Positions 29,808-39,783 of a DNA stretch of 64,000 nucleotides are shown here, one piece after another. The notes beneath the pieces are model-generated. The model made no database searches and was not told where the DNA came from. It saw only the letters and a program-made list of their open reading frames with translations. Positions within the stretch are counted from its first letter, which is position 1; each line of letters starts with the position of its first letter. The DNA comes from Diaporthe sp. PMI_573 (lineage: Eukaryota > Ascomycota > Sordariomycetes > Diaporthales > Diaporthaceae). The DNA lies in contig JAJTUP010000006.1 in NCBI GenBank assembly GCA_021399435.1, positions 868,001-932,000 of the forward strand. Reading direction: 5' to 3'. The position numbers were made by a program, and so were the translations under genes.

Positions 29808-31124
29808 ATGGCACCCGGCTTGACAGAAGAGACCCCGCTTCCTATCAACGGAGTAAAGGGCCACAACGTCGAGAATGGCAAGCACTCGATGACTGAGGAG
29901 GTCCAAGGCGGGCCCGCACTCTCGAAGAAGGGCAAATACAATGCCATTCCTGGGCCCCTGGGCCTGGCTTCTGCCTCTCTCGAGGGCAAGGTTGCGCTGG
30001 TGACCGGTGCTGGTGAGTTAGACTTCCCGTCGACCCAGATCTCTGGATCCTTTTTCCATCCGATGCTCCTCCACTGGACGAGGTCCCTCCCGCCATTGTG
30101 CCCAGCCATCGGTTCGGCCCACGGGAGTAGACCCCTGTAATGCCCCGTTCCGGACGGCGTGTGGGGAAGTCCGGTCGGCCCTCGACTGTGCGCTGGGCCG
30201 GCTGAGCGGGCAGGGATCAGCCGCGAACTACCACCCGCCCCCGTCCTTTGGCATATTTAGCTACGGGCTAAGACAAGAATGCGAAGAAGGATCAGAATGC
30301 TGACATGAGTTTCCCCAGGCCGTGGCATCGGCCGCGAGATGGCCCTCGAGCTGGGGCGCCGCGGCGCAAAGGTCATCGTCAACTACGCCAACAGCAGCGA
30401 GTCTGCTGAGGAGGTCGTGGCCGCCATCAAGGCGGCCGGTTCGGACGCCGTGTCCATCAAGGCCAACGTGTCGGACGTCGACCAGATCGTGAGCATGTTC
30501 GCGCAAGCCAAGCAGGTCTGGGGCCACCTGAACATCGTGTGCTCCAACAGCGGCGTCGTCTCCTTCGGCCACGTCAAGGACGTCACCCCTGAGGAGTTCG
30601 ACCGTGTCTTCAACATCAACACCCGCGGCCAGTTCTTCGTCGCCCGCGAGGCCTACAACAATCTCGAGGAGGGCGGCCGCCTCATCATGATGGGCTCCAT
30701 CACGGGACAGGCCAAGGGTGTCCCCAAGCACGCCGTCTACTCCGGCTCCAAGGGCACCATCGAGACCTTTGTGCGCTGCATGGCTATCGACTTTGGTGAC
30801 AAGAAGATCACCGTCAACGCCGTCGCCCCTGGCGGTATCAAGACCGACATGTACCACGCTGTCTGCAGGGAGTACATCCCCGGCGGCAAGACCCTCGACG
30901 ACGACGGAGTCGATGAGGTATGTGTTTCCAAGATGATCAACGCATATTCTGGACATCGCAAGTGAGGACTAACACGGCTTTTATAGTTCGCTGCTACCTG
31001 GTCGCCGCTCCACCGTGTTGGTCTCCCCATTGATATTGCCCGTGTTGTCTGCTTCCTTGCCTCGCAGGACGGCGAGTGGATCAACGGCAAGGTCCTCGGC
31101 ATTGACGGTGCTGCGTGCATGTAA
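29808..31124 (+). CDS. SDR of the hydroxynaphthalene/versicolorin reductase type
   Basis: NADPH-dependent ketone/naphthol reductase. Exons 29808-30012, 30319-30917, 30987-31124 (introns 306 and 69 bp; the second has a perfect ACTAAC branch point); 313 residues. Rossmann motif GAGRGIG at 67-73, NSG loop near 145, catalytic Ser195, Tyr209 and Lys213 (YSGSK). The line YNAIPGPLG...SLEGKVALVTGAG, the GSITGQAKGVPKHAVYSGSK active-site loop and the end GIDGAACM are near-diagnostic for the fungal trihydroxynaphthalene reductase group (DHN-melanin) and the related versicolorin reductases. The terminal residue is Met, as in trihydroxynaphthalene reductase, rather than the Ile of the tetrahydroxynaphthalene enzyme. 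The N terminus is about 30 residues longer than usual. First of a block of five metabolic genes; which naphthol or anthraquinone it reduces is not decided by sequence. Confidence 0.88.
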
Positions 31125-31409
31125 ATCATATAGGGGGCATGAGAATGAAGCATCTAAGTTTGGCTTTTGTCGTTTTGATGTGATTGCATTGGACATAGCA
31201 GTTCGATGGTCGCATCTGGCAGGCGTTGAGGATTATTATTCCGCACCTCACCGTGTAATTGCTCAAGTCTTGTTACAGTACACGTATAGACCAATGGTCA
31301 ATATTTGATTCTGAAATATTTCTTTCCAGTAACGTAGTTCACTGTCAGCCAGTCTCATCCGTGTGAGGGCCCCAAACCTTCCAGTGCACGTCGGATATGC
31401 CGCCGTTGC

Positions 31410-32139
31410 TCAAACTTGAGACTCAACGTACGCCTTCAGGTCCTTTCCCTGTTGCTCAAATAGCCCCTTCAGCGTCGACCTGGCAGCCAGTAGGGCGAGG
31501 ATAAGCGGACCCTTGTAGTACGTTTCGTACGACACATATCTAGTGGTCCCGTTCCCTTGGTCCACGAGAATATTTGGATGCTCCGCAACTATGAGGACGC
31601 CTAGCAAGGTGACATTGCTCCGCCAGGTGGGCAAGTTCTTGTCGAGCCCCGTCACGACCTCGGCGCTCGTGGTGTTGGCGAGGGGGACGATTCCGGAGGT
31701 GGTGAGGGTCATGGGCATGCCGATGTATACGCCCTCGGGCGTCTTTATCCCTAGGGGTACATCGACATCGATGACGAAGCTGTTCCAGAGGTGGTACGAG
31801 TTGAAGTCGATGAGGGCGTCGTACACCCTCTCTATTACCACACATTAATCAACTGTTACGGTTGCCAAAGTGATGCGTTCTGGACAACCCAAAACATGAC
31901 AGAAAGGGAACCATAGGAAGAAAAGAATAGCGCCTACCAAGAGGGGCGTGGATGAGCTCCTCAGTGCATACCGTGAAGACTGCATCGGTGTCTCCATAAG
32001 TTGGCGTTGGCAGGGTAGACTTGGAGTCTGGAGGGCAACGGAGGCTGGCCCAGTCAATCGAGCACTTGGCTGAGGATGCTATTGCGCTGGCTACAAGACT
32101 GTAAGCAGACATTGAACGGAGGTAGGCTGAGAAACGCAT
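31410..32139 (-). CDS. secreted SRPBCC (START/Bet v1-like) protein
   Basis: Two exons, 31938-32139 and 31410-31831, intron 106 bp (donor GTAGGC, acceptor ATAG), 207 residues. Start ATG at 32137-32139; upstream only a TTG is in frame. Residues 1-22 (MRFSAYLRSMSAYSLVASAI...) look like a signal peptide or membrane anchor. After a Cys-containing segment, the joined line HAPLERVYDALIDFNSYHLW is the beginning of an SRPBCC/polyketide-cyclase-type domain, with later strands TTRYVSYETYYKGPLI and a C-terminal helix. These proteins bind hydrophobic ligands; some cyclise polyketides. It is transcribed toward the SDR gene with a 285-bp gap between stop codons. No catalytic residues can be assigned. Confidence 0.7.
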
Positions 32140-38111: not shown

Positions 38112-38568
38112 GTCACTTTGGGCCAAAGCATGTGGTTCCAGTTGCAAGCTCAATAGAAATACTTCAGAGATAATTGCGGAACCTGTTCACTGAGCTTGAA
38201 GCTCTAAATCGAGGTCACAATATTGAGTCGTTTTTCTCTAGTTGCGCTTGAGTCCAGGAAGTATGCTACTATCATGGAGCTTCAAGCCCTAGTAAATTAC
38301 CGCCCTGATTGAGTCTGAAAGTGCCTGGCTAGAAAGGAATAAAATGCAATTGCGTGAGGTACGCATGAATCGTGATCTGTTGCTCTTGTTGGACACACAA
38401 AACGCCCTCCGCCCACAAGGAAACAGCAAACCGAAAACATATGTCACAGTCAAATTCTTCCTGACGGTAAGCAAGAAAACCACTCGGCAATTCAAATTGA
38501 ACCAGTTTACATTGTATATAAATATGAAACCGTTTGTCGTTCTTCATCCAGACCATGTACTCTCGAGT
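38112..38568. other. convergent 3' ends of AKR and Gfo/Idh genes
   Basis: Non-coding; both flanking genes end here. Nothing else recognised. Confidence 0.5.
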
Positions 38569-39783
38569 TCACTTCAGGAATCTCTCACGCATAGATTCTA
38601 GCTGCTCGTGACGCGCGAGAGCGCCCTCGAATGTCACGTACTTGCTCTCATCGCCATCAGCAAATGCCTCGTACAGAGCTGCGACGTTCTTCACCGGGCC
38701 TGGGTGCCCAACCTGCCAGTCCTGCCACTGCCATTCGACCGGTCTAGTCTCCCCTGTCGCCCGATCGTGCAATTCGATCAAAGCATCCTCGCCCGTATTG
38801 ATATATTGTCCTTCATAGGTGAGGCGCAAGCTTCCCTTCTCTCCACGGATGGTCCAGACAAACGATGGCTGCTTTGGATCTGGAAATGCCGGTCCGGCTC
38901 GCCACGTGGTCACCAGTTTGGCGTCGTTCCTGGTGAACGACGACTCCGGCAGTGATGCCGTCACGATGACCAAGTCCGGTGAATTCGTAGAGATGTCTCT
39001 TACATGTTTACCTCCCGGGCGGTCCAGGAGTTTGATCCTGGGATTTTGAATCTGCATCAGGGCATGGACATCTTTCGCTTCGCCAAGTACATATTGAATA
39101 GGATCCCAAGCTGCGAGGGGTATGGGTCAGCCCAACGAATTCCAAACCATATTGGCGTAAATCAAGTTGAGATGGTACTGACCGTGTGCGAACAGAATTG
39201 CATAATAGTTTGCACCAGACTTTGAGTTTCCAAAGGACTCCAAACCTAGGAATAGAACATCATCGCCCTCTTTCTTAGGCCTGTTATTGACTTCGCTGTT
39301 AATGACCTTTCCGACCACCCCTTCGGCTAACAGTTCTTTCAATTTGACAATATACGGTGCCAGTCTGGCCTGGATAACAACAGCTGTCCTGCCACCGGCT
39401 TTCTTCGACAGATCTGCCAATTCCTTTGCTCTGAGGGCATTCTCTGCCAATGGCCATTCGACAATGACGTCCTTGCCAGCTGCGACGCTCGGTTGAATTG
39501 CATCGTAATGCTTGTCCACCCAGACACTACACACAACTAGGTCGACATTGGGGTCCGCGGCAAGCTCTTCAGGTGCGCCGTATGTGCGAATGCTCTCAGG
39601 GTTCGGAAGTTTGAAATGCTGAACAGATTCACGAGCACGCTCAGCAGTGGATCCGAGCAAGGCGACAATCTGATACCGTTCTTTGCCACGAGGCGATAGG
39701 AGATAGGGCAAATGAGCTACAGCAGCCCAGCCAGATTTTGAGTTCGCGGAGAGGCCGATAAGTCCTACACGAATGGGAGCCAT
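38569..39783 (-). CDS. Gal80-like Gfo/Idh/MocA protein
   Basis: Two exons, 39183-39783 and 38569-39110, intron 72 bp (donor GTCAGT, acceptor GCAG), 380 residues. An N-terminal Rossmann fold (IRVGLIGLSANSKSGWAA) and a C-terminal alpha/beta dimer domain (WDPIQYVLGEAKDV..., GSLRLTYEGQYINT) identify the family. The motif that is EKP in catalytic dehydrogenases, where Lys is needed for hydride transfer, reads E109-W110-P111 (DVIVEWPLAEN), as in the Gal80 branch where the protein is an NAD(P)-binding regulator. It may thus be a non-catalytic sensor or an enzyme with altered chemistry. It converges on the AKR gene and ends the metabolic block. Galactose metabolism is not implied. Confidence 0.82.

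What the first reader, a model, noticed from the sequence alone, without database searches (positions are those of the whole stretch)
29808..39783. Five-gene metabolic block resembling tailoring genes of an aromatic polyketide pathway, without a synthase
In 10 kb the window shows an SDR of the trihydroxynaphthalene/versicolorin reductase group, a secreted SRPBCC (polyketide-cyclase-fold) protein, a P450 whose general line recalls StcS/VerA, an AKR of the norsolorinic acid reductase family and a Gal80-like protein. The SDR, P450 and AKR families are the three that cooperate in anthraquinone-type pathways, yet no PKS, transcription factor or fatty-acid synthase is in view. It may be a fragmented cluster, as in dispersed dothistromin-type pathways, or an undescribed small tailoring cluster acting on a product made elsewhere. 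The block is bordered by a transposon on the right. Co-function is inference.
Basis: partly seen in the sequence, partly recalled or inferred. Interest (0 to 1): 0.75.

Follow-up and report, generated by a model that had tools for sequence, protein, structure and literature searches.

The report
Dispersed melanin reductase with conserved P450
The five genes are real but look mostly unrelated; one is the fungus's ordinary black-pigment (DHN-melanin) reductase, and the only hint of something new is a P450 gene that seems to have stayed near it in several families of the order Diaporthales.

Summary
The five genes are present and intact in Diaporthe sp. PMI_573. They do not look like an anthraquinone-type tailoring set. 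The SDR is the only 1,3,8-trihydroxynaphthalene (T3HN) reductase of DHN melanin found in the genome (81.5% identical to Magnaporthe T3HN reductase, 62.6% to versicolorin reductase). A candidate melanin PKS and T4HN reductase lie on contig C112, a dispersal like that published for Colletotrichum. No PKS domain was found on the window's whole 1.84-Mb contig. The AKR belongs to a widespread AAD14/ausK-like group, the SRPBCC is a weak match, and the Gal80-like protein is a Gfo/Idh/MocA oxidoreductase. The SDR-P450 pair is the exception: SDR and orthologous P450 share a contig in this and 5 of 5 other comparable Diaporthales assemblies, with adjacent locus tags in Cytospora schulzeri, and the P450s form one clade (support 100/99). 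Whether that reflects function or plain synteny could not be tested. A P450 acting on a melanin intermediate is the boldest reading left, at about 15%.

The parts
29808..31124 (+). SDR, 313 aa, exons 29808-30012, 30319-30917, 30987-31124; T3HN reductase of the DHN-melanin pathway (THR1/BUF1-type)
   Evidence: Gene model; best solved relative Magnaporthe T3HN reductase, 482 bits against 331 for versicolorin reductase and 263 for T4HN reductase; tree; database record P0241 'tetrahydroxynaphthalene reductase' at 100%
31410..32139 (-). Small SRPBCC-like protein, 207 aa, intron 31832-31937; N-terminus looks like a signal peptide (by eye)
   Evidence: Gene model, stop position; Polyketide_cyc2 26.8 bits, just below its cut-off
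33753..35632 (+). Cytochrome P450, 551 aa, introns 33906-33968, 34469-34561, 35341-35408; haem loop FELGPRNCIG, AGHDT and ETLR
   Evidence: Gene model; p450 179.5 bits; motifs also in the database record of the same gene, P0001; Diaporthales clade; orthologue shares a contig with the SDR orthologue in relatives
36987..38111 (+). Aldo-keto reductase, 374 aa, no intron; AAD14/ausK-like aryl-alcohol dehydrogenase group
   Evidence: nearest paralogues in own genome 62% and 58%, against 45-48% over pieces for the AKRs of the PKS loci on C112 and C185
38569..39783 (-). Gal80-like Gfo/Idh/MocA-family protein, 380 aa, intron 39111-39182
   Evidence: GAL80 structures 3e1k and 2nvw, 92 bits each
43212..45424 (.). 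Pogo/Tc1-mariner-like element bordering the block, perfect 81-nt terminal inverted repeats
   Evidence: HTH_psq and HTH_Tnp_Tc5 on 44701-45249 (-); 20 further matching pieces of that stretch in the genome, 66-94% identical

Best explanation
The block is a neighbourhood of mostly unrelated metabolic genes, not a five-gene cluster. Its one clear pathway gene is the T3HN reductase of DHN melanin. It reduces T3HN to vermelone, probably also T4HN to scytalone, using polyketide supplied by a PKS on another contig (candidate at C112, about 2.4512-2.4579 Mb, 17 kb from a T4HN reductase orthologue), with scytalone dehydratase on C164 or C152. The P450 near it is a vertically inherited Diaporthales orthologue that stays linked to the reductase; its substrate is unknown. 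AKR, Gal80-like and SRPBCC are bystanders as far as this evidence goes. Shown: sequences, phylogenetic placement, gene positions, contig-level linkage. Inferred: the enzymatic steps, use of the C112 PKS for melanin, and lack of co-function of the other genes.
For: SDR: 482 bits to Magnaporthe T3HN reductase against 331 (versicolorin reductase) and 263 (T4HN reductase); in the T3HN-reductase clade with SH-aLRT 98; no paralogue found in the genome exceeds 69% over a piece or 64.8% over the aligned whole among the six compared. Melanin counterparts elsewhere: T4HN reductase orthologue C112:2475010, 440 bits to 1ja9, 17 kb from a synthase with SAT, KS, AT, PS-DH-like, two ACP and thioesterase regions, a Zn2Cys6 gene between them; scytalone dehydratases on C164 and C152, 219 and 220 bits to the Magnaporthe enzyme. 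Published precedent: in Colletotrichum lagenarium PKS1, T4HR1 and cmr1 are clustered while SCD1 and THR1 lie on another chromosome (PMC6502550, passages). No PKS found on C174. AKR group also in Umbelopsis and Lipomyces. GC3 is uneven: SDR 0.82, SRPBCC 0.71, P450 0.63, AKR 0.65, Gal80-like 0.55 (weak evidence).
Against: SDR and P450 orthologues share a contig in this and 5 of 5 other comparable Diaporthales assemblies, and P450 and AKR orthologues share one in D. australafricana, so the neighbours may not all be bystanders. No expression data. The C112 PKS was assigned to melanin by domain order and neighbours only; its Zn2Cys6 neighbour was not shown to be a Cmr1 orthologue (Pfam found no C2H2 finger in the 395-aa frame), and the scytalone dehydratase on C152 lies about 42 kb from another NR-PKS, which could be the melanin synthase instead.
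Confidence: 0.77

Rival explanations
1. A two-gene melanin side branch: the P450 oxidises or couples a DHN-melanin intermediate (T3HN, vermelone or 1,8-DHN) to a Diaporthales metabolite, which is why it stays near the T3HN reductase.
For: SDR and clade P450 on the same contig in this and 5 of 5 other comparable Diaporthales assemblies, four families in all, adjacent locus tags VMCG_04287/VMCG_04288 in Cytospora schulzeri (families of three of the species checked); P450 clade 100/99; haem loop present in 7 of the 10 clade records checked, P0001 (the window's own gene) included (the other three, P0003, P0006, P0007, lack that stretch in their database models). Precedent: altertoxins are made from 1,8-DHN, the dimerising enzyme is undiscovered and P450 is among the candidate classes (PMC9239091, passages).
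Against: Microsynteny within one order can persist without function, and neighbours outside the block could not be compared. No chemistry, no expression. For Discula destructiva no P450 was among the 120 listed hits although its reductase was listed; the Gnomoniopsis P450s fall in another group.
Confidence: 0.15
2. Dispersed anthraquinone/dothistromin-type pathway, with SDR, P450 and AKR equivalent to StcU, StcS and StcV.
For: Family-level resemblance; several P450 relatives, 47-73% identical, carry transferred names such as AflN, VerA or StcS/sterigmatocystin P450, one clade member (Cytospora mali) included.
Against: SDR lies outside the versicolorin-reductase side of the tree. SDRs and AKRs that do sit with NR-PKS and scytalone dehydratase genes are elsewhere in this genome: C112 3.63-3.645 Mb and C185 1.537-1.558 Mb. 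AKR closest to AAD14/ausK-like proteins.
Confidence: 0.03
3. A small catabolic or detoxification neighbourhood: P450, AAD-type AKR and Gal80-like oxidoreductase act together on plant aromatics or sugars, with the melanin reductase next to it by chance.
For: AKR group is aryl-alcohol-dehydrogenase-like; AKR and clade P450 share a contig in D. australafricana; GC3 of P450, AKR and Gal80-like (0.55-0.65) is lower than that of the SDR (0.82).
Against: No expression data; AKRs at 80% identity or more that bear a species name are only from Diaporthe and Cytospora mali among the 120 listed, whereas the P450 clade also holds Cryphonectria and Coniella.
Confidence: 0.05

Closest known systems
1,3,8-trihydroxynaphthalene reductase of DHN melanin (Magnaporthe BUF1, Colletotrichum THR1, Alternaria Brm2)
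   Same: 81.5% identity over 259 aligned residues to the Magnaporthe enzyme; same clade; apart from PKS and T4HN reductase as reported for Colletotrichum (PMC6502550)
   Different: N-terminus about 31 residues longer than the Magnaporthe chain; Diaporthe orthologues have the same length, 313 aa; P450 neighbour kept in Diaporthales
Versicolorin reductase and 17beta-HSD of Cochliobolus (StcU type)
   Same: Same SDR superfamily branch, 62.6% and 61.6% identity
   Different: Falls in another clade, together with the genome's own PKS-locus SDRs
Scytalone-synthase gene cluster family GCF16 of Diaporthe (PMC13170202, section 2.4 and passages read) and Pestalotiopsis fici BGC0002161
   Same: Melanin pathway of the same genus; may correspond to the C112 locus here (inference)
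   Different: Not this window; the section and passages seen do not mention the T3HN reductase or a P450
Sterigmatocystin/aflatoxin P450 StcS/AflN (VerA)
   Same: P450 relatives at 47-73% identity carry these names by annotation transfer
   Different: No characterised StcS sequence was available for comparison; the window P450 sits in a Diaporthales-only clade of the rows compared
AAD14 / ausK-type aldo-keto reductases
   Same: 64-70% identity to AAD14-, ausK- or aryl-alcohol-dehydrogenase-named proteins outside Diaporthales
   Different: Nearest relatives are unnamed records (92-93%), Diaporthe eres (91%), D. australafricana (85%) and Cytospora mali (80%)

Membership tests
DHN-melanin T3HN reductase | Closest to characterised T3HN reductase and inside that clade | tested here: met
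DHN-melanin T3HN reductase | Catalytic Ser-Tyr-Lys and the C-terminal Met of T3HN reductase (roles recalled; Ile in T4HN reductase, recalled) | tested here: met
   Alignment: GSITG, YSGSK and the final CM are shared with 1doh
DHN-melanin T3HN reductase | Other pathway enzymes present in the genome (NR-PKS, T4HN reductase, scytalone dehydratase) | tested here: met
   which NR-PKS makes T4HN is inferred, not shown
DHN-melanin T3HN reductase | Enzyme activity, tricyclazole sensitivity, pigment mutant | not testable with these tools
   Needs bench work
Versicolorin reductase (StcU/AflM) | Groups with versicolorin reductase | tested here: not met
   separate clades
Polyketide biosynthetic gene cluster | Core synthase in or near the block | tested here: not met
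   0 of 136 KS pieces and 0 of 55 SAT pieces on C174; for KS 123 of 180 first-look candidates were scored, so weak pieces could be missed
Polyketide biosynthetic gene cluster | Conserved co-occurrence of the five genes in relatives | tested here: inconclusive
   SDR-P450 contig sharing in this and 5 of 5 other comparable assemblies; P450-AKR in 1 (D. australafricana); SRPBCC and Gal80-like not searched
Polyketide biosynthetic gene cluster | Co-expression | not testable with these tools
   No expression data held
CYP59 / StcS-type P450 | Groups with characterised StcS | not tested
   No characterised StcS sequence available; names are transferred; the CYP59 family name is recalled
Norsolorinic acid reductase (StcV/NorA-type AKR) | Groups with characterised NorA/StcV rather than generic AAD | tested here: inconclusive
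   Nearest named proteins are AAD14/ausK-like; no characterised NorA/StcV was compared
Gal80 regulator | Gal80-type sequence family | tested here: met
   PF22685 79 bits, GAL80 structures 92 bits; a regulatory role was not tested

The most novel reading that the evidence does not exclude
The Diaporthales keep a two-gene melanin side branch, T3HN reductase plus a dedicated P450. The P450 oxidises or couples 1,8-DHN or an earlier naphthol, diverting the melanin pathway to a small-molecule product without a synthase of its own.
Probability: 0.15. Interest if true: 0.65.

Novelty: new member of a known kind. Interest (0 to 1): 0.3.

Why it matters
As it stands it removes a false polyketide cluster and explains the absent synthase: the one clear pathway gene is a dispersed melanin reductase. 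If the conserved SDR-P450 pair proves functional, it would give a concrete candidate for the kind of oxidase that turns DHN-melanin intermediates into other metabolites (PMC9239091 says that the dimerising enzyme for altertoxins remains to be discovered), testable by deleting one gene.

Tried and rejected
Rejected: SDR as StcU-like. Rejected on present evidence: AKR as a pathway-specific norsolorinic acid reductase; its group reaches Umbelopsis and Lipomyces, although no characterised NorA was compared. Considered: the ABC transporter at 49085-53422 as a cluster member; nothing supports it, and it lies beyond the RIP-like relic and the transposon.
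Full report
What is there. The window is G000:C174:868001-932000 of an 83.7-Mb fungal genome. Its SDR and P450 are identical to records of Diaporthe sp. PMI_573 (P0241, 100% over 100%; P0001, 100% over 91% of the query), whose listed contig length, 1,836,676, equals that of C174. All five genes give intact models with GT-AG introns where they have introns. Four match the expected Pfam families over the cut-off; the SRPBCC match is just under it.

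The SDR. Its best solved relative is Magnaporthe T3HN reductase (482 bits), well ahead of versicolorin reductase (331) and T4HN reductase (263). In a tree of 31 rows (window, 4 PDB chains, 6 paralogues of the same genome, 20 of the 120 listed homologues) it lies in the T3HN-reductase clade (SH-aLRT 98), apart from versicolorin reductase and the genome's own PKS-locus SDRs. Identities over the aligned part: 81.5% to T3HN reductase, 62.6% to versicolorin reductase, 50.0% to T4HN reductase. No paralogue found in the genome comes near it: at most 69% over a piece and 64.8% over the whole among the six compared. One search scored 127 of 276 candidates.

Where the rest of the pathway may be. C112:2475010 is a T4HN reductase orthologue (440 bits to 1ja9). 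About 17 kb away is an NR-PKS with SAT, KS, AT, a PS-DH (product-template-like) hit, two ACP stretches and a thioesterase, with a Zn2Cys6 gene and a LanC-like gene in between. Two scytalone dehydratases close to the Magnaporthe enzyme are on C164 and C152 (219 and 220 bits). In Colletotrichum lagenarium, PKS1, T4HR1 and cmr1 are clustered and SCD1 and THR1 lie on another chromosome (PMC6502550, passages). A 2026 Diaporthe paper reports a scytalone-synthase cluster family kept across the genus (PMC13170202, section 2.4). So the missing synthase is expected: the reductase is a dispersed melanin gene. That the C112 PKS makes T4HN is my inference; its Zn2Cys6 neighbour was not shown to be Cmr1, and another NR-PKS lies about 42 kb from the C152 scytalone dehydratase.

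No synthase nearby. None of the 136 KS pieces or 55 SAT pieces listed is on C174, and no uninterrupted Zn2Cys6 motif is in the window. NR-PKS loci that do carry an SDR, an AKR and a scytalone dehydratase are on C112 near 3.63 Mb and on C185 near 1.54 Mb; their AKRs are 45-48% identical to the window's, over pieces.

The P450. The best-scoring records are from Diaporthe and Cytospora, with Cryphonectria and Coniella further down at 59% and 51% (best 120 of 1018). In trees of 48 rows (47 of the 120 listed plus the window) and 33 rows (32 of 120 plus the window) ten Diaporthales sequences, the window included, form one clade (SH-aLRT 99; 100/99). Diaporthe and Cytospora each form a group and Cryphonectria pairs with Coniella. 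A second Diaporthe/Gnomoniopsis group is separate. Names such as AflN or StcS on relatives are transferred annotations; no characterised StcS was compared.

Linkage. I compared the 'longest contig' lengths listed for the SDR and for the clade P450 (the best 120 of each). They agree to the base in PMI_573 (1,836,676) and in 5 of 5 other comparable assemblies: Diaporthe eres (1,099,528), Cytospora schulzeri (784,780), C. paraplurivora (1,526,343), Coniella lustricola (74,750) and Cryphonectria parasitica (5,118,729). These are four families, three of the species checked. C. schulzeri tags are adjacent (VMCG_04287, VMCG_04288). Set aside: D. amygdali (lengths differ, 4,327,563 and 6,154,057, and the named records bear different tag prefixes, so probably different assemblies); D. 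eres SLS63, D. australafricana and C. mali (no SDR listed for that assembly); D. ilicicola and Discula destructiva (no clade P450 listed). As a rough control for chance sharing, in 7 species outside the order found in both lists (Coniochaeta 2T2.1, Bombardia, Anthostomella, Cercophora LCS_1, Apiospora marii, Rhypophila, Daldinia loculata) the lengths differ in 7 of 7; their P450s are not clade members and some entries stand for several sequences. Two more such species (Neoarthrinium moseri, Eutypa lata) also differ but bear different tag prefixes and were set aside. The non-clade P450 of D. ilicicola is also on another contig (183,408 against 164,664). This shows linkage at contig level, with adjacency only in C. 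schulzeri, and not function: flanking genes could not be compared, and the 5.1-Mb Cryphonectria contig is weak evidence. P450 and AKR share contig length 691,901 in D. australafricana.

The other three. AKR: records at 92-93% without names, Diaporthe eres 91%, D. australafricana 85%, Cytospora mali 80%; then AAD14-, ausK- or aryl-alcohol-dehydrogenase-named proteins at 64-70%, including Umbelopsis and Lipomyces (best 120 of 7350). Gal80-like: Gfo/Idh/MocA with a GAL80-like C-terminus. SRPBCC: weak match; 'polyketide cyclase' in the family name does not show such a function (recalled). GC3 differs among the five (0.55 to 0.82), weak evidence against a unit.

How it most likely works. The SDR reduces T3HN to vermelone on substrate made elsewhere, and probably also T4HN to scytalone: in Alternaria, Brm2 and the T4HR1-type Brm3 are described as isoenzymes for that step (PMC9239091, passages). 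The P450's substrate is unknown. The most novel reading is a melanin side branch: in Alternaria, altertoxins are made from 1,8-DHN and the dimerising enzyme is undiscovered, P450s being one candidate class (PMC9239091, parts of the abstract and other passages). I found no paper describing a Diaporthales melanin-linked P450 in searches of an open-licence library; of the papers listed there I opened only PMC6502550, PMC9239091 and PMC13170202 (passages, and one section of the last), and PMC7169410 (from one search, passages); the rest I saw as listings.

Noticed in passing
window 43212-45424: Pogo/Tc1-mariner-like element with perfect 81-nt terminal inverted repeats, suggesting a recent insertion; among frames of 170 aa or more only a 183-aa frame with HTH domains was listed inside it; 20 further matching pieces of that frame in the genome.
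   Followed up: partly
window 41001-43000: AT-rich stretch (GC 0.40 and 0.39) with RIP-like dinucleotide ratios (TpA/ApT 2.19 and 1.59) between the Gal80-like gene and the element.
   Followed up: partly
window 49085-53422 (-): Large ABC transporter frame with two ABC and two membrane stretches, about 9 kb right of the block.
   Followed up: no
   Followed up: partly
G000:C26, C150, C164, C166: Near-identical versicolorin-reductase-like SDR copies on four contigs; the C166 copy appears to have a disrupted frame.
   Followed up: no
L078, C112:2471422-2472504: A LanC-like gene lies between the candidate melanin PKS and the T4HN reductase.
   Followed up: no
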